This document shows, one piece after another, positions 37,458 through 50,355 of a DNA stretch of 64,000 bases (positions within the stretch are counted from its first letter, which is position 1; the number at the start of each line of letters is the position of its first letter). The notes beneath the pieces were generated by a model. The model worked only from the letters and a program-made list of their open reading frames with translations. It had not been told where the DNA came from and made no database searches. The DNA is from Melioribacteraceae bacterium. Lineage in GTDB: Bacteria > Bacteroidota > Ignavibacteria > Ignavibacteriales > Melioribacteraceae. The stretch lies in assembly GCA_024103215.1 (NCBI GenBank), contig JAGFIY010000127.1:1-64000 (forward strand), given 5' to 3'. The position numbers were made by a program, and so were the translations under genes.

Positions 37458-37478
37458 TAATTCAAATTACGGAATTTA

Positions 37479-37504
37479 AAGCCGGTCATTCGATCGGCTT
37501 TTTT
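37479..37504. terminator. Terminator after secF, between convergent operons
   Basis: The stem AAGCCGGTC / GATCGGCTT (9 bp, one G-U pair, loop ATTC) runs straight into a T-run. It overlaps the stop of the minus-strand YhhN gene, so it may also stop transcription coming the other way. Confidence 0.88.
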
Positions 37505-38141
37505 ATTTCAAAGAAAGTGCAAACAATAGTTGTGCAATAAAGTAAGAGTTAAGAATGATGTATTCGCATTTAGGATTATTATTCCGGAATTTTTTATAGG
37601 CAAGAAATGAATCCGATATAACAAAAAGTATTGCTCCGATGCTAATTAGCATGGATGCCTGATCTCTCATAAATAAATATCTATTAATTCCCACCCAAAA
37701 CATAACCGTTAAAACTCCGACATACAAAAGAACCACAAGTCTATATTTCCCGATTGAATTTCCAAGAATAACTAACATTATACTTGAGAAAAGTATGGCT
37801 GAAATCAACAAGTAAAAGTTAAATGCAAATACACCTTGAATAAAAGCAAATGAATAAGCAATGTGTGCAACTAAAAATGCAATCAATCCGTACTTAAACT
37901 TCGATTCTTTCAGCATCAAAAAAACATCCCCAACAAATGAAATTATTAGTGCTGATTTTATATAGAATGAAAATCTGCTTTCGGGATTTGAATCTATGGC
38001 AAAAGCAAGAACAATGATCGAAATAATTGTAATCGGTTTTAGAACCAAGAATAATTTACGCTTCGAATCAATGTTTACCCTTAGATGAGATGAAAAAATA
38101 GATAAAATTAAAATGAGAGCTATAGCGGAAGTAATAATCAT
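37503..38141 (-). CDS. YhhN-family membrane protein (lysoplasmalogenase-like)
   Basis: This 212-residue protein is almost all membrane helices (about seven to eight). It has the YhhN pattern: a LVLKPITIISIIVLAF start, LIISFVGDVFLML, FLVAHIAYSFAFIQGVFAF, and the ending GAILFVISDSFLAYKKF with FIAQLLFA. Family members hydrolyse the vinyl-ether bond of lysoplasmalogens (human TMEM86 group), and bacterial activity has been shown for Legionella. It is the last gene of the phosphatase/sigma operon and overlaps the preceding gene by 4 bp, so it is a possible output gene of that circuit. Confidence 0.82.
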   Translation of the reverse strand: MIITSAIALILILSIFSSHLRVNIDSKRKLFLVLKPITIISIIVLAFAIDSNPESRFSFYIKSALIISFVGDVFLMLKESKFKYGLIAFLVAHIAYSFAFIQGVFAFNFYLLISAILFSSIMLVILGNSIGKYRLVVLLYVGVLTVMFWVGINRYLFMRDQASMLISIGAILFVISDSFLAYKKFRNNNPKCEYIILNSYFIAQLLFALSLK

Positions 38142-40711
38142 TTCACTTTGACCAAAACCAAAGTGATATCATCGTTTTGGGATTCAACTGCACGAAATGT
38201 TTTTAATGAATTCATAATTTCATTTTCAACCTGCATGGCGGACCTGCTGCTCGATTGTTTTAAAATACTTTTAAATCTTCCATCTCCGAAAAATTCCTTT
38301 TCTTTATTCATCGCTTCTGTAATTCCATCAGAATAAAATGCAAACAGCTGACCCGTTTCCAATGGCAGTTCAATCTCTTCAATTGAATTGTCGAAAACAT
38401 CTTCAGTCTTCATTCCAATCCCAATTCCTTTCGGAACATATTCATCGATATGAAAATCTTTTGCAACTAGAAGCGGCGTATGACCAGCCCTACAGTAATT
38501 CATCTTTTTAGTTTCAGTATTAAAAAGAGCAATAGATACAGTTATGAACCAGTTTCGTTCAATTGTAGGTGTAATTTTTTTATTCACTTCCACGAGAACT
38601 TCTTTTGGAGTTCTTCCTTCTGAACAAAATAATTTTATCATAGTTTCCAGTTTGGACATATAGAAAGATGCAGCTAATCCTTTGCCAGACACATCTCCGA
38701 CTACTACGAACACTCTTTTTTCATCAAGCTTTATCAAATCATAATAATCTCCTCCAACTTGCATTGCCGGATGCATACTACCGCAAATATCTAAACCTTT
38801 TATATTTGGAATACTACTCGGAAGCAGGCTAATTTGAATTCGCTTAGCATTTTCCAAATCACGATCAATTTTAAGTTTTTCCGCTTCTGCCTCATACAAC
38901 CTTGCGTTCTCAATAGCGGCGGCTATCTGGTTGCAAACAGCAGTCAGAAGTTCCAAATCCTTTCCTGCAAATTGTGCCCCAGAATGCTTTAACCCAAACA
39001 AAACCGATCCGATGATTTTGTTTTTAATCATCAACGGTATAATTGTGTAAATCCCTTCATCTTTTAATTTTTCAGCACTTTCTGGATATATTTTTTTGAA
39101 ATCATTTTCTTCGATGACCGGGTTAAGTTTTAGTCTTTCTTTTTCTTTCAAAACTTCCCTAATCCTTGTTTCTCTATCCTCGAGTAAAATGGAAGACTTA
39201 TCAATTCCAACTGCTCTTAGAATTACACAAGTTTTATTACCACCGTTGGATTTAAGAAGTATTGCCACTTTCTTCAACTTTAGTGAATTTATGAAAGTAT
39301 CTACAACTGAATCTAATATGTTATCCATTCCAACGATTGTTGAGATGTCACTGCTAAACTTTACCAATACTTTTTGAAACGCAAATTGTTCGGGATAAAA
39401 TCTTGAAGTAATTACTTCTTGAAATCTGTCCTTGGTTGATTGAAAGATCAGTGCAAAACCTATGAAGATTATACCTGCAATAATCCCTTGATATTCAGTT
39501 CCTATGGCGCTGCTTATCGATTGCCCTAATACATAAATTACTACAAAGTATAGTGCTGCTAGTGTGATCGTTGCTGTAGTGTACATTATTGTGTTTTTAA
39601 TTACATCACTTACATCCATTAACGAATATTTGAAGATTGAGTAACCAAACGAGATTGGGAGAAGCACGATTAAAATAATCGGCATGAAATACTCAGGCGA
39701 ATTGAACTGTGTAACCGGCTGAGCAGTAACAATGGCTGTAGTATAATATATTATTGCTGCAACTCCGAGAGCATAGGTTATTAATATCACAAAAATTGCG
39801 TTTCTTTCATGCTGTGTCTTAAGTCTTTGATAACTTATAAACAAACTAATTAGTCCAACGACTATGGCTGCACTTGATAGCCAGGACATTAGATTGAAGT
39901 AAAGCGCAGCTTGAATAAAATTATCTCTCATATAAGCAGAGAAATAAAGCACCAAAACAAGCAGATATATTACACTAGGTCCTATATATAGAAACCTTTG
40001 AGTTACTTTTTTATCAATAAACTTGTTTGGTTTCGGAAACACCCAGAAAAAATGTATTAGCACAAACGGGAAAAAAGAAACTCCCAAAAGTGACATTAAA
40101 TCTATAATTACACTAAGCCAAATCGGGAAAGAATTTTCTATGTATGGATTGTTAAAGCTTCGGATAACAACCATATTAAATAGGATTAACATCACTGCAA
40201 CTCTGAAAAACAATCTCTGTGGAACGCCGTTTGGTTTTGCCATTACAACAACATACCCAACAATAAGCCAAATTAGCCCCAGAAGTGAAAATGCCACCCC
40301 TTGGAAGTTGAGTAGTTTTTTAACTTCAACTTTCGTTTCGAATACTCGCCCGTTTCTCTTGATCTTATAAAGCGCCGAATCCCCTCCTTCAACTCTGTTT
40401 AGAACACGCTGGGCGGTACTTAAATCACCGCTTACATCAACATTGTTGATGGCAAGAAGTTCGTCACCGTCCCGTATTCCGGCTTTCCAAGAAACACCCT
40501 CAAACTTTACAAAGGAAAAAAATGTGCCTACGCTGTCCTTGGATATTTTTTCATTTCTCCACAGACACTCATCGTTCGACATCGGGTTTACTTCAAACAA
40601 GAAATAAAGATTTATCAATGCAATAACAAACAAAATAAGCGAAACCGGTTTAATTAAAACCTTTTTTGCCTTATCGAACTTGTAGGTTATATTTAAGTTA
40701 GATTGGTTCAT
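38138..40711 (-). CDS. PDZ-7TM-GAF-PP2C (SpoIIE/RsbU-type) serine phosphatase
   Basis: This 857-residue membrane phosphatase probably removes phosphate from a STAS antagonist. Domain order: a first helix (about 17-38), then a PDZ-like extracytoplasmic domain (about 55-120, SWKAGIRDGDELLAINNVDV), several helices (about 125-390), a GAF domain (about 430-595), a linker helix, and a SpoIIE phosphatase (about 635-855) with VGGDYYDLIKLD, VVGDVSGKGLAASFYM and SDGITEAMNKE, then QNDDITLVLVKVK. The metal-binding aspartates are present. A PDZ domain between membrane segments could sense envelope proteins, as in DegS/RseP-type systems; that is inference. It overlaps the neighbours on both sides by 4 bp. 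Confidence 0.88.
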   Translation of the reverse strand: MNQSNLNITYKFDKAKKVLIKPVSLILFVIALINLYFLFEVNPMSNDECLWRNEKISKDSVGTFFSFVKFEGVSWKAGIRDGDELLAINNVDVSGDLSTAQRVLNRVEGGDSALYKIKRNGRVFETKVEVKKLLNFQGVAFSLLGLIWLIVGYVVVMAKPNGVPQRLFFRVAVMLILFNMVVIRSFNNPYIENSFPIWLSVIIDLMSLLGVSFFPFVLIHFFWVFPKPNKFIDKKVTQRFLYIGPSVIYLLVLVLYFSAYMRDNFIQAALYFNLMSWLSSAAIVVGLISLFISYQRLKTQHERNAIFVILITYALGVAAIIYYTTAIVTAQPVTQFNSPEYFMPIILIVLLPISFGYSIFKYSLMDVSDVIKNTIMYTTATITLAALYFVVIYVLGQSISSAIGTEYQGIIAGIIFIGFALIFQSTKDRFQEVITSRFYPEQFAFQKVLVKFSSDISTIVGMDNILDSVVDTFINSLKLKKVAILLKSNGGNKTCVILRAVGIDKSSILLEDRETRIREVLKEKERLKLNPVIEENDFKKIYPESAEKLKDEGIYTIIPLMIKNKIIGSVLFGLKHSGAQFAGKDLELLTAVCNQIAAAIENARLYEAEAEKLKIDRDLENAKRIQISLLPSSIPNIKGLDICGSMHPAMQVGGDYYDLIKLDEKRVFVVVGDVSGKGLAASFYMSKLETMIKLFCSEGRTPKEVLVEVNKKITPTIERNWFITVSIALFNTETKKMNYCRAGHTPLLVAKDFHIDEYVPKGIGIGMKTEDVFDNSIEEIELPLETGQLFAFYSDGITEAMNKEKEFFGDGRFKSILKQSSSRSAMQVENEIMNSLKTFRAVESQNDDITLVLVKVK

Positions 40712-42387
40712 TTAAATTTTATGATCATAAGTGTAATATCATCTGATTGTTCGGCTCCCATTGTGTGAGCTTGAACCGCAGAAATAACTGAATCCAATAT
40801 TTCGTTCGAGGATTTATCTGCATTCTTCTCGACTATACTTTCCAACTTCTTATCCCCAAATTCTTCAAACTCTTTGCTGAATGCTTCAGTAATTCCATCC
40901 GTAAATAAAACTATGCAGTCACTTTTGTCAAATTCTATTGTTGTTGAAATGTATGGTTCTAATGTCTCTATAACACCTAATATCATCCCTCCTTTTTTTA
41001 GGAATGACTTCTTTCCGTTTGATAAAAATATAGGCGGATTATGACCTGCGTTTACAAAAGTAAATGATTTTCTTCTTTCATCAATAATTCCCCAAAAGAA
41101 AGTAATGAAACTGCCTCCCACTGTATTTTCGGAGACAAGATCATTTATAAGATTAGACGCTTTATCTAATGAGATGTTTTGCTTACAAATTGACTTTAAA
41201 AAAGCTTGGAGGTTAGCCATTAAAAGTGCAGCCTGCACCCCCTTCCCTGAAACATCTGCAATTGCAATAAGCACCTTATCCTCACTTAAACGAATCACAT
41301 CGTAGTAATCTCCGCCAACTTGTTTTGCTGTTTTATTGTAAGTAGCAATTTCAAAAAAATCGGAATCCGGCAATTTTTTCGGAAGAAGATTCTGTTGAAT
41401 TGTCCTCGCGGTTTCCAGTTCTTTTTCAAGTTTTTGTTTCTCGATTGCTTCGTTGAATAATCTTGAATTCTCTATCGAAATAATCGCCAAACTTCCTACG
41501 GAAGCAGCAAATTCCAGATCCGAATTTGAGAATTCTTTATTATTTTTTCTTGATCCAAGAAGAATTAAACCTCGGTTAATTCCTTTTATCTGAAGCGGAA
41601 TAATTATTTTAACACCCAACTCTGCCAGTTGGGAAAAATCATTCGAGTTGGTATCAATTATAATTGTTTTATTAATCTTTTCAACAAATTCTTTTGATAT
41701 TAAATTTTTCAACTCTACAGTCGAAAACTTATTTTCAAGTAGATTAATTTCATCATCTAGAATTGTAACAAATGCAAATTTAGAAACAAGTAACTGTCCT
41801 ATAATAGAAAAGACGAGAAGCTTAATTACCATTTTTTCTTCAAGAATTCCGCTGAATTCCTTACTCAAATCGAAAAGCGAACTAAGCTGGTTAACTTTTG
41901 CATCAAGGTCCCTGTTAGCTTCATTTAATTTTCCAAACATCAGCGCATTATCTATTGCACTTCCTCCAAGATTTAGAAGAGTTTTTAGGAACTCCACATC
42001 TCTTTCAGAATATGGTTCTTTAGTTAGTCGTTGTCCAAGTATCAGAAGCCCGATAAAACCATTCGAAGTTAATATTTTTTGGCATATTGGAAGATTGTTT
42101 TTTTTCATATAATCATTGATTTTCCCCGGGTCATGTTCATATTCCTCAATTTTGATTTCCGGGAAATCGTCAAGCACACTTTTTAACAATCCTTTACTTG
42201 CTTTAATTCTTAAACTTCCGTTTTCCGAAAGTGCGATTAGCCCCTTTGATGTATGAAACTTTCCAAAACAAGTAAGCAATAAATTGTTGAGAGTGAAATC
42301 GATTTTAAGATTAGAATTGATAAGATTGCTGAACTCAACCAATGTGGAAAAATCTTTGAGCAGGTTGGTGTTTTCAAAGTTTTCCAT
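40708..42387 (-). CDS. Cytoplasmic GAF-PP2C (RsbU-type) serine phosphatase
   Basis: This 559-residue soluble protein has two GAF-like sensory regions (about 15-150 and 175-310) and a C-terminal SpoIIE phosphatase (about 345-557) with VGGDYYDVIRLS, IAIADVSGKGVQAALLMANLQ, FVNAGHNPPIFL and LFTDGITEAF. The final QSDDITLMIIKFK completes it. It lacks membrane helices, so it would answer to an internal signal while its two relatives in the operon answer at the membrane. Start ATG at 42387 lies 2 bp after the kinase gene. Confidence 0.88.
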   Translation of the reverse strand: MENFENTNLLKDFSTLVEFSNLINSNLKIDFTLNNLLLTCFGKFHTSKGLIALSENGSLRIKASKGLLKSVLDDFPEIKIEEYEHDPGKINDYMKKNNLPICQKILTSNGFIGLLILGQRLTKEPYSERDVEFLKTLLNLGGSAIDNALMFGKLNEANRDLDAKVNQLSSLFDLSKEFSGILEEKMVIKLLVFSIIGQLLVSKFAFVTILDDEINLLENKFSTVELKNLISKEFVEKINKTIIIDTNSNDFSQLAELGVKIIIPLQIKGINRGLILLGSRKNNKEFSNSDLEFAASVGSLAIISIENSRLFNEAIEKQKLEKELETARTIQQNLLPKKLPDSDFFEIATYNKTAKQVGGDYYDVIRLSEDKVLIAIADVSGKGVQAALLMANLQAFLKSICKQNISLDKASNLINDLVSENTVGGSFITFFWGIIDERRKSFTFVNAGHNPPIFLSNGKKSFLKKGGMILGVIETLEPYISTTIEFDKSDCIVLFTDGITEAFSKEFEEFGDKKLESIVEKNADKSSNEILDSVISAVQAHTMGAEQSDDITLMIIKFK

Positions 42388-42389
42388 CT

Positions 42390-42824
42390 TTAGGATACGT
42401 ATTTTACTAAGACAACTTGATTTTTATTGCTGGATATGGTGTTGTATCTAACTTCATCCATAAGTTTTTTCATCAAGAACATCCCTAATCCTCCCACTTT
42501 TCTTTGTTTATGAAATTCAACTATGTCGGGATCCGGCACTATGTTAGGATTAAAATGTTCTCCTTCGTCTGTTATTTTTATTTCAATTTTCTTTCTGTTG
42601 GCTTTCAGCGATAGAACTATTGTTCCTTCGGGTGAATATTTATAGGCATGCTTAATAATATTTGTACAGGCTTCATCCACAGCCAGGATTATCTTTCCGA
42701 TATTCTGCTCATCAATACCAGCATCTAATGCAGCTTCGCGAATGAAATTCCGAACTTGATGCAAATTTTCGGTTGTGCTTTTTATACTTAATTCGCGATT
42801 AATATTTTGGGAATTACCGGACAC
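42390..42824 (-). CDS. RsbW-like serine kinase / anti-sigma factor
   Basis: This 144-residue GHKL ATPase is of the anti-sigma kinase type. Its N-box is AVDEACTNIIKHAYK with Asn55, G1 is ITDEGEHFNPN, and G2 is GGLGMFLMKKLMDEV. Such kinases bind either a target or the STAS antagonist, and phosphorylate the latter on a serine. No SigB-type sigma gene is adjacent; the only sigma factor in the operon is ECF. The start is GTG at 42824 and overlaps the STAS stop (TAGTG), so kinase and antagonist are made together. Confidence 0.9.
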   Translation of the reverse strand: MSGNSQNINRELSIKSTTENLHQVRNFIREAALDAGIDEQNIGKIILAVDEACTNIIKHAYKYSPEGTIVLSLKANRKKIEIKITDEGEHFNPNIVPDPDIVEFHKQRKVGGLGMFLMKKLMDEVRYNTISSNKNQVVLVKYVS

Positions 42825-43180
42825 TATTTTCCCTTCTGATTAAATTTTTCTACTGCTTCTTTTTCGTCCTTATAGAACTCATAGAGCATAGGGAACCCCA
42901 ATAAATCAAAGATGTTATAGACGCTTTCATTCATGTTGGAGAATTTTATATCACCGTTATTCTCCCTCATTGTCTCCACATAAGCCATAAACACACCAAG
43001 CCCGGCACTGCTGATATAAGTAAGATCAGAGAAGTTGACGACAATCTGGAATTTTTTTTCATCAATCAGCTTGTTGAAAACACCCTCCAATTCCGGTGCT
43101 GTATGAGCGTCTAAATAACCTTTAACATCGATGATCTGGACGGGTTCTGAACCTCTAGTATCGACGCTGAAATCTACCAT
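42824..43180 (-). CDS. STAS-domain anti-sigma factor antagonist (RsbV-like)
   Basis: This 118-residue single STAS domain has the phospho-acceptor region LTYISSAGLGVFMAY, with Ser58 aligned to the phosphorylated serine of SpoIIAA. Unphosphorylated it should bind the RsbW-like kinase and free the kinase's partner. It is overlapped by a phosphatase gene upstream (TAATG) and the kinase gene downstream (TAGTG), the natural order of a partner switch. Confidence 0.92.
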   Translation of the reverse strand: MVDFSVDTRGSEPVQIIDVKGYLDAHTAPELEGVFNKLIDEKKFQIVVNFSDLTYISSAGLGVFMAYVETMRENNGDIKFSNMNESVYNIFDLLGFPMLYEFYKDEKEAVEKFNQKGK

Positions 43181-45249
43181 TAAATAACTCCATCCTTTTT
43201 GTTTTTAACTTTTTTAAATATAACCAAAGTTATATCATCGTGTTGAGAATTATCCTTCGCGAAAAGCGAAACTTGTTTCATAATTTCGTTTGTTATTTCC
43301 TGAATCGGTTTATCTGCTAATTCGATTATTATATTTTTCAATTTTTCGTATCCGAATTCCTCGCCGTTTAAGTTTTGTGATTCGGGAATTCCATCCGTAA
43401 ATAAAACAATAATATCGTTATAATTAAAACTAATTTCCATTTCCTTCAAAGTGGAAGAAAATAAGTCCCCATAATCAAGACCTAATCCTAAACCTTCTGG
43501 GGTGAGACTTTCCAATTCACCCTCGTGGAAATGATAAAGAGGCGTATGTCCAGCGCGGGCAAAAGTTAAATTGCCTTTGTTAAAATCGAAAACACCGTAA
43601 ATAGCTGTTACGAATGTTTTCCTTTCCAAACTGTTTTTCAGAACATCATTTGCCTTTACCAGCAATTCTTTAGGACTTTCGATCATCTTCGACAAAGAGG
43701 CAAATATTCCTTTTACCTCTGCCATAACAAATGAGGCTGAAATCCCCTTGCCACTCACATCAGCAATAACAAAACCTAGTTTGTTGTCTGGAAGTTCGAA
43801 AAAGTCGTAATAATCTCCTCCTACTTCAAAAGCGGGAACAAAGAAAAATGAAATATCAATATCTTTAAACTTAGGTGCGTTGTTTGGAATAATTTTATAC
43901 TGAACTTCGCGAGCGACATCCATTTCTTTTTCCAAACGTTCCTTCTCAAGTGATTTTTCAATAAGTTTCGCATTTTCAAGAGCAACAGATGCATAATCAG
44001 CAAAAGCTGAAATTGATTTTTGATCTTCTTCATCAAATTCAAAATCACTTTTCCTTCCGACAAACAAATAACCGTTTATTTCATTGTGAAGCATCAATGG
44101 GGCTGCCGCTATGGAACTAAAGTTTGCTGATTTCAAGTCGTCACTTGCCACAAATTTAATTTCCCTACTGCTTGTGATTTTTAATTCCGTTATGTCAGAT
44201 TCTCCGGGTCGCAAAATCGCTTCAGTTATTTTGTCAGCTTCAACAAAACCGATATTATTTACTGAAATAAGTTCAAACTCATTGTTGTTTTTGGTTACAA
44301 GCCAGGATGATTCGGAATTACAGACTTTATTTGTAACTGTCGTTACGGTATCAGCAAGTTCTTTAAAATCAAAAACTTCCGTGATAAGTTTGCTTAAATC
44401 CATCAACGAAGAAACTTCTTCAGCCTTTCTATCAAATGCTTCTGCAGTCGGTAGATGAAAAAGAGTTGTGAAGAAAATAACACCAAAATAAATCGTTCCG
44501 TAAATCATAATCAGCGAGAAAAACATTTGCAGCCCATAAGAGAAATTAAGAATTACTTGATTTACCAGCATTGATTCAAAAGTAAGATAAAAATTTATTC
44601 CAAATAGAATAGAAAGTACTACTGAGATTATCAACAGATACAATTTTTGTCTTTTTGTAAGAAATGCAATCCAAGCAACTCTCAACGAGTTAACTGTTAT
44701 TAATACAATTGATACCACAAAAAAAGTGTCGGTTAAGAAATCCAGAGAATCGTTAAGTTTTTCGAGGACTTGTGCTATGAAAGCCAATGCAATGAACAAA
44801 CTCATAACATTAAAATAACTTCGCGGATCGCGTTTCTGTTTAAGGAAAAACAATTCCCTAAATGCGGCAAAAATGTAAACGTTTCCGGCAATGAAAACAA
44901 ATGAAACCAGCGATGAGATTAAAACATACAAAAATCCTGTCCCTGGTGAAAATGCCGGGTCCTCGGTTAAAACCGAAGACGAAACGGCAATAATAAAAAA
45001 GAGAAGCGCATTTAATATTCCAGCATTTAAGACAATTGCAAGCGGTGATTTTACTTTAAATTCAATAATAGATACGATATAAAGCAGCCAAAAGTAAACT
45101 GCGAGAAATGCGAAAGTCTCGTTAATTAGAATAATTATTGTAGAATCTTGCAGCGGGAAAAATATTTTAAAAATGAAAAATAAAATTGAGACTAGGAGAG
45201 CATTCTCAAGTTTCTGTGTTGCAGCTAATTTTGTAAAAGGAAGATTCAT
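43180..45249 (-). CDS. 7TM-GAF-PP2C (RsbU-type) serine phosphatase
   Basis: This 689-residue membrane protein has about eight hydrophobic segments (about 15-265) with no large loop. A GAF domain follows (about 285-425), then a coiled linker (EKERLEKEMDVAREVQYKI) and the SpoIIE phosphatase (about 460-685) with VGGDYYDFFELPDN, IADVSGKGISASFVMAEVK, FARAGHTPLYHF, LFTDGIPESQN and QHDDITLVIFKKV. It is the third phosphatase of the operon. The membrane part resembles the sensor of 7TM histidine kinases; the ligand is unknown. Confidence 0.88.
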   Translation of the reverse strand: MNLPFTKLAATQKLENALLVSILFFIFKIFFPLQDSTIIILINETFAFLAVYFWLLYIVSIIEFKVKSPLAIVLNAGILNALLFFIIAVSSSVLTEDPAFSPGTGFLYVLISSLVSFVFIAGNVYIFAAFRELFFLKQKRDPRSYFNVMSLFIALAFIAQVLEKLNDSLDFLTDTFFVVSIVLITVNSLRVAWIAFLTKRQKLYLLIISVVLSILFGINFYLTFESMLVNQVILNFSYGLQMFFSLIMIYGTIYFGVIFFTTLFHLPTAEAFDRKAEEVSSLMDLSKLITEVFDFKELADTVTTVTNKVCNSESSWLVTKNNNEFELISVNNIGFVEADKITEAILRPGESDITELKITSSREIKFVASDDLKSANFSSIAAAPLMLHNEINGYLFVGRKSDFEFDEEDQKSISAFADYASVALENAKLIEKSLEKERLEKEMDVAREVQYKIIPNNAPKFKDIDISFFFVPAFEVGGDYYDFFELPDNKLGFVIADVSGKGISASFVMAEVKGIFASLSKMIESPKELLVKANDVLKNSLERKTFVTAIYGVFDFNKGNLTFARAGHTPLYHFHEGELESLTPEGLGLGLDYGDLFSSTLKEMEISFNYNDIIVLFTDGIPESQNLNGEEFGYEKLKNIIIELADKPIQEITNEIMKQVSLFAKDNSQHDDITLVIFKKVKNKKDGVI

Positions 45250-45285
45250 ATTTTCAAATTATATCACGAACAGACTATTATTATA

Positions 45286-46572
45286 TTACTTCTTTTTTTT
45301 CTGTTGTTTGATTGCTTCTTTTAAGCTGTCTATATTCAATCTAAACATTTGCTCTTCAAATCTCATTAATGAATCGTAACGGGAGGCTTCCTCTTCAATA
45401 AGTAAGCCTAATGAATCAAACTTTACACCAAGTTCTTCCCATTCATTCCATTTCATATTATTTAAAGATTTTTCAACACTTTCGGAAATTAACTTATTCA
45501 ATGAACCTAAATTAAAATTAAGGTTCAAATTTTCGAGTGAATCCAAGTTATCTGTGTTGAACTCTATTTTTAAACTTTCAGCATCGTCCTGCAGAGCAAA
45601 TGCGAAATTAAATGTATAGATTCTTTCAGTTAGGCTATCTATATTTTTCATTAATGCATCAAATTGAGGACTTTCCGGGAAATTATTACTTGCCATAACT
45701 TGTGTATTGAAATTCCAAGTCGGAGCCTCAGGCATATCAGGAATTCTAATTTTCCTTAGATTGACCGTAGCGCCTTGCCTCGATTGATTGTTTTCATAAG
45801 TGATATAATTACTTTCTTTTGATTCTTCTTGCGAAAAAGTAAGATTTTTGTTTAAGTCTTTAACTAGATCGACATTAACTTTCAGTTTTGTTGCAAAAAC
45901 TGTGTCCGGAGCAAATACAATAAAATCTTCCAAAGGTTGATTTTTCGCTAGAGAAGTAAAATCATATACATTTTCAAAATCATTTAAAAAATGAGTTTCG
46001 CCAGCCATGGCAAGCCACATCTCATGGTTGGATTCTTTTACGGCCAGCATCAAGTCAGCAAAAAGTGCATCTCTAACACTCTTCAACCTCGGACTTACAG
46101 CTATTGTACTATCGGAAGAATATATAGATTCATAAATCGGTTCTTTATAAGATTCTAAAATTGAATCTATTTTAGCTCTTCCGTCTTCATTAAGGTGAAG
46201 ACTTGAAATAAAATTTTCGTAATTGTGTTTCTCAATCATATCCCCGGCAGGCTGTACCGAATAGAAAGTTTCATCACCGTTTCCTTGTGAAAGATTACTA
46301 AGAACCAAATTTTTATTCTGATTCTTATCCAGCGGAAGTTTTTGATACATCGCAAAATTAAACACATCTTCGTTAGATAGAGTTGTTTCAAGAAGCAGAG
46401 GTTTTAAGTTTGAAGTATAAAAATCCATCAAACTTTTTTTACCATCTCTATAAATATTATCAACGTCGCGATTTTTAAAAAACAACATCAGCGCTGCGGT
46501 AAGAATAAACAAAGCAACAGCGGGAAGAAACTTTTGTATGCTGGGCATATTTGCTGATAAAAATTTTTTCAT
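45286..46572 (-). CDS. Unknown membrane-anchored protein paired with the ECF sigma factor
   Basis: I do not recognise this 428-residue protein. It has one membrane helix near the N-terminus (about 14-32, FLPAVALFILTAALMLFF) and a short cytoplasmic part. A long periplasmic region follows, rich in Asp, Asn, Leu and Ser, ending in a Lys-rich tail (KEAIKQQKKKK). The periplasmic half contains helical heptad-like segments but no cysteines forming a zinc finger, so it is not a ZAS-type anti-sigma factor. Its ATG lies 1 bp after the sigma factor stop, the slot where anti-sigma factors normally sit. The cytoplasmic segment (12-13 residues) is short for binding a sigma factor, so it may instead be a periplasmic sensor. 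Confidence 0.6.
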   Translation of the reverse strand: MKKFLSANMPSIQKFLPAVALFILTAALMLFFKNRDVDNIYRDGKKSLMDFYTSNLKPLLLETTLSNEDVFNFAMYQKLPLDKNQNKNLVLSNLSQGNGDETFYSVQPAGDMIEKHNYENFISSLHLNEDGRAKIDSILESYKEPIYESIYSSDSTIAVSPRLKSVRDALFADLMLAVKESNHEMWLAMAGETHFLNDFENVYDFTSLAKNQPLEDFIVFAPDTVFATKLKVNVDLVKDLNKNLTFSQEESKESNYITYENNQSRQGATVNLRKIRIPDMPEAPTWNFNTQVMASNNFPESPQFDALMKNIDSLTERIYTFNFAFALQDDAESLKIEFNTDNLDSLENLNLNFNLGSLNKLISESVEKSLNNMKWNEWEELGVKFDSLGLLIEEEASRYDSLMRFEEQMFRLNIDSLKEAIKQQKKKK

Positions 46573-46573
46573 T

Positions 46574-47182
46574 TTACATATTCAATTCTTTTTGATACGG
46601 TTCTAAAATTATTTTTAAACTTTCGCGCGCTCTAAAAATTCTCGATTTAACGGTTCCAACCTCACAATTCAACTGCTCAGCTATTTCTTTATAACTAAAT
46701 CCATCAATATCTCTTAACATCAAAGGTATCTTCAACTTATCCGGCAATTTGTTAATGGCTTTTCTAACAAGCTGCGGGATATCAATCCCCTCAACTCTTA
46801 TACGTGTCGTGGCAGAATGTTCCTGATTCTCCAAAGGTACAAAAATGCTTCGTACTTTTTTCTTTCTTAAATAATCCCGGCATTTATTAACCGTGATTCT
46901 GTAAAGCCAAGTGGTGAACTTAGATTCAAATCTGAAAGTATCAAGTTTATGATAAATACTTATAAAAACATCCTGTGAAATATCATCGACAAATTCTGCA
47001 TCACCGAGTGTTAGAAAAATAAGGTTTCTCACTTTGTCTTTATGTTTGTGTACAAGTTTGCTGTAAGAACCTTCGTTACCACTGTTAAATTCTTCAATAA
47101 GGCGGTAATCTTCTTCGTCACTCAACTGAGCGTTTGATTTTTCCTCAAACTTTTCGTTTTCTTCGCTCATTTTAGACGTCAT
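46574..47182 (-). CDS. ECF RNA polymerase sigma factor
   Basis: This 202-residue sigma-70 family protein contains only regions 2 and 4. Region 2 (about 30-105) has FVDDISQDVFISIYHKLDTF and FTTWLYRITVNKCRDYLRKK. Region 4 (about 138-190) has INKLPDKLKIPLMLRD, then GFSYKEIAEQLNCEVGTVKSRIFRARESLK. An acidic N-terminal extension of about 30 residues precedes region 2. The start may be ATG 47182 or ATG 47170; neither has a clear Shine-Dalgarno. It heads the eight-gene minus-strand operon. Its target promoters, and whether it reads its own operon, are unknown. Confidence 0.92.
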   Translation of the reverse strand: MTSKMSEENEKFEEKSNAQLSDEEDYRLIEEFNSGNEGSYSKLVHKHKDKVRNLIFLTLGDAEFVDDISQDVFISIYHKLDTFRFESKFTTWLYRITVNKCRDYLRKKKVRSIFVPLENQEHSATTRIRVEGIDIPQLVRKAINKLPDKLKIPLMLRDIDGFSYKEIAEQLNCEVGTVKSRIFRARESLKIILEPYQKELNM

Positions 47183-47388
47183 TTACAATTTTTATGTTCC
47201 ATAATCAGATTTTTTATCCCACCGTTGAAATTTGAGATTAAATTACTTTCCTTTTATAAGTCATTTCTATAACTTATCTAATATAATTAATAATGTCCAT
47301 TATTTGTATTTGCTCGAAAATGAATGATATTTGCTTGATATAATATCATCAGAATATTAAATTGATAATCAAACATTTGGGAGAATTT

Positions 47389-47727
47389 ATGAAGATTAAA
47401 ACTCGAGAACAATATAATGCGGTTGTTGTTGAGCTTAAGGGTAATGTTATGGGCGGTCCTGAGGCACAAGAATTTCAAGATCTCCTTCACAAATTTATCG
47501 ATGAAGATAAAAAAAATATTGTAATCGATTTAGCAAGCGTAAAATTCATGAACAGTTCGGGTTTAGGAATGTTGATTAGCGGTTTCACTACCGTCAAAAA
47601 TAACGGCGGATCAATGAAACTGGCTAACGCTACCGAAAAGATCGAAAGCTTACTGGTAATTACCAAATTGATAACGATTTTTGAGCACTTTGAATCGGTT
47701 GATGAAGCAGTAAAAAGTTTTAACTAG
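47389..47727 (+). CDS. STAS-domain anti-sigma factor antagonist (second copy)
   Basis: This 112-residue STAS protein is divergent from the sigma operon. The ATG at 47389 follows GGGAGA and is preferred over an in-frame TTG at 47362. The acceptor motif is VKFMNSSGLGMLISGF, with Ser57 in the phospho-acceptor position. It differs enough from the operon copy to suggest a second input to the same kinase, or a separate partner. Confidence 0.9.
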   Translation: MKIKTREQYNAVVVELKGNVMGGPEAQEFQDLLHKFIDEDKKNIVIDLASVKFMNSSGLGMLISGFTTVKNNGGSMKLANATEKIESLLVITKLITIFEHFESVDEAVKSFN

Positions 47728-47754: not shown

Positions 47755-49079
<1,325 letters not shown>

Positions 49080-49140: not shown

Positions 49141-49155
49141 CACAAATTGGGAATT

Positions 49156-50355
49156 ATGGCTTCCGGTCCGAAATCATTTAATTTAAAAATTGTACTTCTG
49201 ATAATTGCATTTGCAATTGCTCTAGGAACATTATACTACACACAGAATATTGTTCAAAAACTTCAACTGCGTGAAAAAAACATTGTTGAACTTTATGCAA
49301 ATAGTCTCCAGTACCTCGCGACTTCAGACGAACAGAGCGAAGATTATACTTTTATTTTCGACGTAATTAGAAGAATTGATTTTCCTCTTATCTTAACTGA
49401 TCCAAATGATAAAGTAAACCTGAGCGGAATGGCGTTTGGAATACGTAACGTCGAATACGACTCAACCCTTACTCAAGAAGAACTGATATCATTTATAGAC
49501 GAAAAAATAGTTGAACTTAGTAAGGAACACTCGCCCATTCCAGTAACAATCGACGATACATTAGTTGTTCAAAAAATTTACTACGGAAATTCAGACCTTA
49601 TTAAACAGCTTATTTACTATCCCTATTTGCAGATATTATCAGCAATTATTTTTATCCTGATTAGTTATGTAAGTTTCAGTTACATGAAAAAAACGGAACA
49701 AAGCAATATTTGGGTTGGAATGGCTAAGGAAACAGCCCACCAACTAGGAACCCCCATTTCAAGTTTAATGGGTTGGAGTGAAATGCTTAAATTAAATTAC
49801 AATTACCCTGATAAAGTTTCCGACGTTGCAGATGAAATGGATAATGATTTGACTCGCTTGAATAAAATCGCAAAAAGATTTTCTAAAATAGGTTCAAATC
49901 CGGAATTAAAAGAAAACAACATTTACGAAATTATTAACGGTGTTGCCGATTATTTTAAACGCAGACTGCCGCAATTCGGTCATTTAGTTCAAATTTTGAT
50001 AACCGGTAATAAAAACATAGTATCAAAAGTTAATGCTGATCTTTTTGAATGGGTACTAGAGAACCTGATAAAAAATTCACTAGATGCAATAGAAAATAAA
50101 GAAGGAAAAATTGAAATAGATATTAGTGAACTTCCCAAAACAATTGAAATTTCAGTTACGGATAATGGCAAAGGCATAGATATCAAGCGAAGAAAAGATA
50201 TTTTCAGACCAGGTTACAGCACAAAAAAACGTGGATGGGGTTTGGGCTTGAGTCTTTCAAAGAGGATCATAAGCGACTATCACAAGGGTAAAATTTTCGT
50301 GAGCCGCTCCGAAATCGACAACGGAACAACAATTAAAATTATACTTCCAAAATAA
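49156..50355 (+). CDS. Membrane sensor histidine kinase
   Basis: This 399-residue kinase has two membrane helices (about 12-30 and 156-176) around a periplasmic domain of about 125 residues. It has no HAMP; the second helix leads into a DHp helix with KETAHQLGTPISSLMGW and phospho-acceptor His195. The ATPase has NLIKNSLDAIE (N-box), VTDNGKGID and GWGLGLSLSKRI. The HQLGTP form of the H-box is seen in a Bacteroidetes/Chlorobi kinase group. The ATG at 49156 (after GGGA) is preferred over an in-frame TTG at 49147. No response regulator is adjacent, so it is an orphan kinase. Confidence 0.92.
   Translation: MASGPKSFNLKIVLLIIAFAIALGTLYYTQNIVQKLQLREKNIVELYANSLQYLATSDEQSEDYTFIFDVIRRIDFPLILTDPNDKVNLSGMAFGIRNVEYDSTLTQEELISFIDEKIVELSKEHSPIPVTIDDTLVVQKIYYGNSDLIKQLIYYPYLQILSAIIFILISYVSFSYMKKTEQSNIWVGMAKETAHQLGTPISSLMGWSEMLKLNYNYPDKVSDVADEMDNDLTRLNKIAKRFSKIGSNPELKENNIYEIINGVADYFKRRLPQFGHLVQILITGNKNIVSKVNADLFEWVLENLIKNSLDAIENKEGKIEIDISELPKTIEISVTDNGKGIDIKRRKDIFRPGYSTKKRGWGLGLSLSKRIISDYHKGKIFVSRSEIDNGTTIKIILPK

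What the first reader, a model, noticed from the sequence alone, without database searches (positions are those of the whole stretch)
37503..47182. Eight-gene operon joining an ECF sigma factor to a full partner-switching module
Gaps and overlaps of 1-4 bp (36 bp once) link an ECF sigma factor, an unknown membrane protein, three PP2C phosphatases, STAS, an RsbW-like kinase and a YhhN membrane enzyme. RsbW-type kinases classically hold SigB/SigF, not ECF factors, and no SigB is present. Either the kinase controls this ECF sigma, or a different partner is used. Three phosphatases with three input types (7TM, soluble GAF, PDZ-7TM) would make it an integrator of several signals.
Basis: partly seen in the sequence, partly recalled or inferred. 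Interest (0 to 1): 0.68.

Follow-up and report, generated by a model that had tools for sequence, protein, structure and literature searches.

The report
Sigma factor stripped of its brake
In one bacterial family a self-activating gene switch sits in the same operon as a phosphorylation relay and has lost the protein domain that held it in check in related families, so the relay's kinase is the most likely replacement brake, which would be a new way to control this class of switch.

Summary
The eight-gene row is real. Comparative genomics changes its meaning. In the window's family f1 and in f2 that domain is missing (0 of 57 sigma+membrane-protein loci), and nine f1 loci lack the whole gene but keep the sigma factor. 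(2) PP1-STAS-kinase-PP2 is an older module; outside the order I found it and the sigma pair only apart. (3) The sigma gene follows a conserved GGAAC-N16-CGTCTAA promoter, unique in the window's genome at that stringency, so it probably drives its own operon. (4) Where the domain is present, sigma and anti-sigma overlap and the module is >=120 bp away (48 of 48). Where it is absent, the row closes up (<=105 bp, 56 of 58). An active, self-amplifying sigma without its brake, welded to an RsbW-type kinase, suggests that the kinase replaced the brake. That step is inferred: co-variation was inconclusive.

The parts
47196..47200 (-). -35 element GGAAC of the ECF auto-regulatory promoter
   Evidence: conserved bipartite motif; single exact pattern in the genome
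47173..47178 (-). -10 element CGTCTA of the same promoter (17-bp spacer in the window)
46574..47182 (-). ECF sigma factor (202 aa as listed; start more likely 47170)
   Evidence: Pfam Sigma70_r2 and r4_2
45286..46572 (-). UNK: TM-periplasmic relic of the ECF's anti-sigma factor, N-terminal anti-sigma domain missing
43180..45249 (-). PP1: multi-TM + GAF + PP2C phosphatase
42824..43180 (-). STAS anti-anti-sigma-type protein, phospho-acceptor Ser57/Ser58 region
42390..42824 (-). KIN: RsbW/SpoIIAB-like serine kinase
40708..42387 (-). PP2: soluble GAF + PP2C phosphatase
38138..40711 (-). PP3: PDZ-like + multi-TM + GAF + PP2C phosphatase
37503..38141 (-). YhhN family membrane protein; in the row here but not conserved with it
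47389..47727 (+). STAS2: divergent second STAS protein, syntenic across the order

Best explanation
The row is a captured and rewired ECF circuit. An auto-regulated ECF sigma factor and its membrane anti-sigma factor (ASD-TM-periplasmic), a stand-alone pair outside the order, came to lie upstream of an older RsbU/V/W-type module (PP1-STAS-KIN-PP2) in the ancestor of the order. In the window's family (f1, probably Melioribacteraceae) and in f2 the anti-sigma domain was then deleted, leaving only a TM-periplasmic stub or nothing, and the row became one tight operon. Proposed working: the ECF transcribes its own operon from the GGAAC-N16/17-CGTCTAA promoter. The RsbW-like kinase holds the ECF while the STAS protein is phosphorylated. 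Any of the three phosphatases (multi-TM/GAF, soluble GAF, PDZ-like/multi-TM/GAF) dephosphorylates STAS on its own signal, STAS takes the kinase, and the ECF is freed. Shown here: module completeness, promoter conservation, domain loss, change of gene coupling. Inferred: that the kinase binds the ECF, that the operon is one transcript, and what the signals are.
For: Anti-sigma identity of UNK: f3 orthologues have an extra ~80-aa N-terminal domain; profile best PDB match RsiW, RseA and MucA also listed; four-helix model, 11 of 12 Foldseek hits anti-sigma domains; present in 20 of 20 outgroup loci with ECF directly upstream. Domain loss: 0 of 57 f1+f2 ECF+UNK loci have it, 49 of 49 f3 ECF+UNK loci do; no remnant in the gaps; in the window's genome four of the five weak domain matches lie about 300 bp from other sigma genes, the fifth scores 16.4 bits. 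Coupling: ECF-UNK overlap in 49 of 49 f3 but 8 of 52 f1 and 0 of 5 f2; gap to PP1 >=120 bp in 48 of 48 f3 but <=105 bp in 56 of 58 f1+f2. Losses: nine f1 loci (five genera) lost UNK alone, four f3 loci (three genera) lost ECF and UNK together. Auto-regulation. Kinase, STAS and phosphatase active sites conserved. No SigB/F/G for the kinase.
Against: The module is found without the ECF outside the order and at four f3 loci, so the kinase has, or had, another job. Co-variation between ECF and kinase is not above controls. No striking kinase change accompanies the domain loss: three conservative differences. RsbW-like proteins served as negative controls for ECF partners in PMC7406223 (passages). 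Two RpoD-like and one FliA-like sigma are alternative kinase targets. Branch order of f1, f2, f3 is unresolved. Positive auto-regulation is predicted from sequence only.
Confidence: 0.42

Rival explanations
1. One-way wiring: the ECF is only the transcriptional driver of the operon. The kinase/STAS switch has another target, inherited from the module's ECF-free past (an RpoD-like or FliA-like sigma, or a non-sigma effector bound by STAS). After domain loss the ECF is limited by its synthesis rate or by proteolysis.
For: Module without ECF in other lineages and at four f3 loci; only clear promoter target is the operon itself; Chlamydia RsbW targets the primary sigma (PMC4552016).
Against: Leaves a self-amplifying ECF without a brake in f1; does not explain why sigma and module became tightly joined exactly where the domain was lost, nor why f1 drops UNK but not ECF.
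Confidence: 0.38
2. The ECF is now held by an unlinked anti-sigma domain protein elsewhere in the genome, or is controlled by regulated proteolysis.
For: Other anti-sigma domain-like proteins exist in f1 genomes.
Against: In the window's genome four of five such matches sit about 300 bp from other sigma genes and score 17-22 bits, the fifth 16.4 bits; G001 has none.
Confidence: 0.12
3. The stub UNK still restrains the ECF through its short cytoplasmic tail.
For: UNK is kept in 52 of the 61 f1 loci with ECF and in all five f2 loci.
Against: Only 4-26 residues precede the TM helix in f1 and 11-18 in f2, against 80-137 in f3; nine f1 loci have no UNK at all; in f1 UNK overlaps the sigma gene in only 8 of 52 loci.
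Confidence: 0.06

Closest known systems
RsbU/RsbV/RsbW-SigB and SpoIIE/SpoIIAA/SpoIIAB-SigF (Bacillus subtilis)
   Same: PP2C phosphatase, STAS antagonist and GHKL serine kinase in one operon; kinase closest in the PDB to RsbW and SpoIIAB
   Different: the linked sigma is an ECF (no region 3), three phosphatases, no SigB/F/G in the genome
ECF sigma / class I anti-sigma pairs (RpoE-RseA, SigW-RsiW, AlgU-MucA)
   Same: f3 and outgroup loci: ECF directly followed by an ASD-TM-periplasmic protein, GGAAC-type -35, auto-regulation predicted
   Different: in the window's family the anti-sigma domain is missing and the pair is welded to a partner-switching module
Bordetella btr locus (BtrS ECF, BtrA, BtrU/V/W)
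   Same: an ECF and a phosphatase/STAS/kinase set in one locus
   Different: BtrA is the anti-sigma there and BtrU/V/W act on secretion by an unknown route, not on BtrS (PMC7498569, passages)
EcfG-NepR-PhyR (Alphaproteobacteria)
   Same: an ECF released by a partner switch
   Different: sigma mimicry by a response regulator; no STAS, no serine kinase (PMC8103513 and PMC8999054, passages)
RbaV/RbaW/RbaY (Rhodobacter capsulatus)
   Same: a Gram-negative Rsb-like switch without SigB
   Different: no sigma gene nearby; RbaW showed no two-hybrid interaction with four sigmas tested, two of them ECFs (PMC3999984, passages)

Membership tests
RsbU/V/W-type partner-switching module | SpoIIE-type PP2C with catalytic Asp motifs | tested here: met
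   all four motifs in PP1, PP2 and PP3 of the window
RsbU/V/W-type partner-switching module | STAS protein with phospho-acceptor Ser | tested here: met
   SSAGLG; Ser58 in 144 of 144 aligned rows
RsbU/V/W-type partner-switching module | GHKL serine kinase with N, G1 and G2 boxes | tested here: met
   seven key columns invariant in 129 of 129 order rows
RsbU/V/W-type partner-switching module | kinase binds STAS and a sigma factor in exchange | not testable with these tools
   co-variation inconclusive
SigB/SigF general stress or sporulation system | SigB/F/G-type sigma as target | tested here: not met
   best SigBFG score 128.9 against a cut-off of 234.35 among the four longest sigma frames
Class I anti-sigma factor (window's UNK) | N-terminal cytoplasmic four-helix anti-sigma domain | tested here: not met
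   absent in the window and in 57 of 57 f1+f2 ECF+UNK loci
Class I anti-sigma factor (f3 and outgroup UNK) | N-terminal cytoplasmic four-helix anti-sigma domain | tested here: met
Class I anti-sigma factor (f3 and outgroup UNK) | gene next to its ECF | tested here: met
   overlap in 49 of 49 f3 loci; 20 of 20 outgroup loci adjacent
EcfG-NepR-PhyR partner switch | NepR and PhyR homologues at the locus | tested here: not met
   no such family among the Pfam and NCBIfam matches listed for the ten proteins scanned

The most novel reading that the evidence does not exclude
An RsbW-type serine kinase has replaced the native anti-sigma factor of an ECF sigma factor: possibly the first ECF governed by an RsbU/V/W switch, with the evolutionary steps (pair joined to module, anti-sigma domain deleted, operon closed up, stub lost) still visible across living families.
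Probability: 0.4. Interest if true: 0.82.

Novelty: new variant of a known kind. Interest (0 to 1): 0.62.

Why it matters
ECF sigma factors and RsbW-type switches are treated as separate worlds; one coevolution study used RsbW as its negative control for ECF partners (PMC7406223, passages). If the kinase is the new brake, a sigma factor has changed its class of inhibitor, and the before and after states survive in sister families. That would make 'how does a sigma factor swap its inhibitor?' directly testable. Even if it is not, the locus shows an anti-sigma factor shedding its sigma-binding domain while its sensor part is kept, and gives a clean promoter for reporter experiments.

Tried and rejected
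Residue co-variation (mean-field DCA): 95 paired sequences, Neff 56; control and test pairs had similar tails, so it says nothing. Distance covariation: in f1, ECF-kinase equals kinase-STAS (0.51 each), but neighbours outside the operon are nearly as high (HK 0.43-0.54). The STAS2 figures are invalid, because my scripts took the window's STAS2 from 47391, out of frame (true start 47389); the one bad row also sits in the STAS2 profile and. A wider regulon: the relaxed pattern gives 32 sites against 36 for the reversed control in the window's genome. The strict pattern in 58 relatives plus the window's genome gives 120 sites against 294 for the control (my sums). A degenerate regulon is not excluded. 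Anti-sigma domain remnants in f1/f2 ECF-UNK gaps: none. Fold of the full-length f3 protein: mean pLDDT 62, no Foldseek hit at E<=0.001, periplasmic part unidentified. Rfam at the locus: nothing. Kinase differences between f1/f2 and f3: three conservative ones. The regular expression for the kinase G1 box was too strict (53 of 143) and was replaced by column counts. Considered and dropped: that YhhN belongs to the system; that the module was born with the ECF.

Rows left out: the genome-contig loci L120-L137 (they repeat genomes already counted, at least in part) and L372-L380 (short contig ends); 3 of the 7 f3 loci without ECF and UNK are cut contigs (L339, L344, L350). One search prints no anti-sigma domain for the 20 outgroup loci because that table was not searched there; their 20 of 20 is. 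Whole-genome absence of the ECF was tested only for G050, not for G579, G581 and G582.

Papers: PMC3999984, PMC7498569, PMC7406223, PMC8103513, PMC8999054, PMC4552016: passages only. Listings and abstract starts. The main ECF classification paper (10.1093/nar/gkaa1229) is not held, so the ECF group of this protein is not assigned. Searches that showed me no ECF controlled by an RsbW-type kinase.
Full report
WHAT IS THERE. Pfam gives an ECF sigma factor, a 428-aa protein with no family over its cut-off, three SpoIIE/PP2C phosphatases, a STAS protein, an HATPase_c_2 kinase and YhhN. I call them ECF, UNK, PP1, STAS, KIN, PP2, PP3, YhhN; transcription order is ECF, UNK, PP1, STAS, KIN, PP2, PP3, YhhN. 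Catalytic motifs are intact in the window, and seven ATP-site residues of KIN are invariant in 129 of 129 rows from the order. Diverging from ECF is a second STAS gene (47389-47727), followed by adenylosuccinate synthase and a histidine kinase. The window's genome (3.2 Mb, 186 contigs) has 12 Sigma70_r2 matches. The four longest reading frames were classed: two RpoD-like, one ECF-type, one FliA/WhiG-like, and none near the SigB/F/G cut-off; the others are ECF-sized. Four small stand-alone RsbW-like kinases exist in the genome, this one included.

WHO THE RELATIVES ARE. The tools hide the organism. So f1 is probably Melioribacteraceae and f3 Ignavibacteriaceae, in one order (recalled: Ignavibacteriales); f2 is a third family without a name here.

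SYNTENY. UNK is found in 52 of 58 relatives, and around it the order AdSS< STAS2< | ECF> UNK> PP1> STAS> KIN> PP2> PP3> repeats, apart from contig ends and occasional missing genes at the margins. In five of the six relatives without UNK the gene is cleanly missing while ECF sits 2-29 bp from PP1; the sixth (G050) has neither ECF nor UNK at the locus, and no ECF orthologue elsewhere (best 73.7 bits, 30 % identity).

THE UNKNOWN PROTEIN IS A TRUNCATED ANTI-SIGMA FACTOR. In f3 the orthologue carries about 80 extra N-terminal residues (LSAYIDGEL...) before the TM helix. Singly they match zf-HC2 or RseA_N weakly (one of nine proteins scanned over a cut-off). As a profile their best PDB match is RsiW (E 0.01), with RseA (0.14) and MucA (1.5) also listed among unrelated hits. 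The predicted structure has four helices (mean pLDDT 70), and 11 of 12 Foldseek hits are anti-sigma domains (RsiW, MucA, RseA, RslA; E-values all above 0.1, RsiW probability 0.99). The four-helix layout is how PMC7406223 defines a class I anti-sigma domain (passages).

WHICH STATE IS OLD. A class-level search found UNK in 69 of 197 genomes. I fetched 20 loci outside f1-f3: 20 of 20 have ECF directly upstream, 20 of 20 UNK proteins carry the domain, and none has the module in the fetched stretch. Conversely, the module was found without ECF-UNK in 20 of 20 fetched PP2 loci of the class and phylum (15 with all of PP1-STAS-KIN-PP2) and in named records from Calditrichota, KSB1, Balneolales and other Ignavibacteria. 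So two separate units came together in the ancestor of f1+f2+f3 (clade support 1.0 in both trees), and the domain was lost later, once or twice, because the branching of f1, f2 and f3 is unresolved (support 0.21 and 0.06).

HOW CLEAN THE PATTERN IS (one locus per genome, window not counted). f1, 63 loci: 52 ECF+UNK without the domain, 9 ECF without UNK, 2 cut, none with the domain. f2: 5 of 5 ECF+UNK without it. f3, 60 loci: 49 ECF+UNK with it, 3 UNK with it but no ECF in the stretch, 1 cut, 7 without both (4 real, 3 cut contigs). Residues before the TM helix: 4-26 (f1), 11-18 (f2), 80-137 (f3), 79-122 (outgroups). ECF and UNK overlap in 49 of 49 f3 loci, 8 of 52 f1, 0 of 5 f2. The gap from UNK to PP1 is >=120 bp in 48 of 48 f3 loci, and <=105 bp in 51 of 53 f1 and 5 of 5 f2. 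Remnants of the domain in the f1/f2 ECF-UNK gaps: none. In the window's genome the five weak matches to the domain profile are four about 300 bp from other sigma genes and one of 16.4 bits.

THE SIGMA PROBABLY DRIVES ITS OWN OPERON. Upstream of ECF a bipartite motif GGAAC-N16-CGTC(TAA) stands out (31 of 47, 17 of 23 and 10 of 20 loci at exact spacing in f1/f2, f3 and outgroups; shuffled maxima 8, 5, 3; this set includes duplicate genomes). With spacing 15-18 it is at 44 of 61 f1, 5 of 5 f2, 47 of 49 f3 and 17 of 20 outgroup ECF genes. The exact pattern occurs once in the window's genome, at this gene. In 58 relatives it is not more frequent than its reversed control, and the relaxed pattern is not enriched either (32 against 36). 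So by sequence the only clear target is the operon itself; degenerate targets remain possible. The -10 box overlaps the first ATG of the listed ECF frame, so the start is probably the ATG at 47170 and the transcript nearly leaderless (inference).

MECHANISM. Shown: a complete, intact partner switch; a conserved promoter of the auto-regulatory type; loss of the sigma-binding domain; closure of the gene row where it is lost; loss of UNK alone in f1 (nine loci, five genera) against loss of ECF and UNK together in f3 (four loci, three genera). Inferred: an active, self-amplifying ECF needs a brake. In f1 the only protein in the operon from a family known to hold sigma factors is KIN, so KIN probably sequesters ECF, and STAS, dephosphorylated by any of three phosphatases with different sensor parts, releases it. 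The main rival is one-way wiring: ECF drives the module, and KIN keeps an older target. The module's wide ECF-free distribution favours that rival; the domain loss and closure favour mine. Co-variation had no power to decide.

KNOWN SYSTEMS. Bordetella encodes an ECF with BtrU/V/W in one locus, but there BtrA is the anti-sigma and the switch acts elsewhere (PMC7498569). RbaW of Rhodobacter bound none of four sigmas tested (PMC3999984). A review of non-canonical ECFs gives EcfG/NepR/PhyR as its partner-switch case and has no occurrence of RsbW (PMC8999054). RsbW can hold sigmas other than SigB: sigma66 in Chlamydia (PMC4552016). I found no report of an ECF held by an RsbW-type kinase, in an open-access library that lacks the main ECF classification paper.

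VERDICT.

Noticed in passing
L230, L232, L144: In family f10 and a related record the PP1-STAS-KIN-PP2 module lies beside SecD-SecF and a STAS2-like gene; in the window too SecD-SecF flank the row, so this neighbourhood may be older than the joining of the ECF.
   Followed up: no
f3 UNK-PP1 gaps (122-377 bp in most f3 loci): TCTTTAC occurs in 17 of 51 f3 gaps and TCC-N15-CTTTA in 21; possibly a second promoter for the module where the anti-sigma domain is kept.
   Followed up: no
L091 (G000:C60): A second cluster in the window's genome with a kinase, a STAS-like protein and two PP2C-type proteins (one 1267 codons long), so cross-talk between switches is possible.
   Followed up: no
window 49147-50355: A histidine kinase follows adenylosuccinate synthase next to STAS2 in most of the order; its partner was not looked for.
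   Followed up: no
window 37478-37501 and 47755-47781: Clear terminator-like hairpins between SecF and YhhN and after STAS2 bracket the region.
   Followed up: partly
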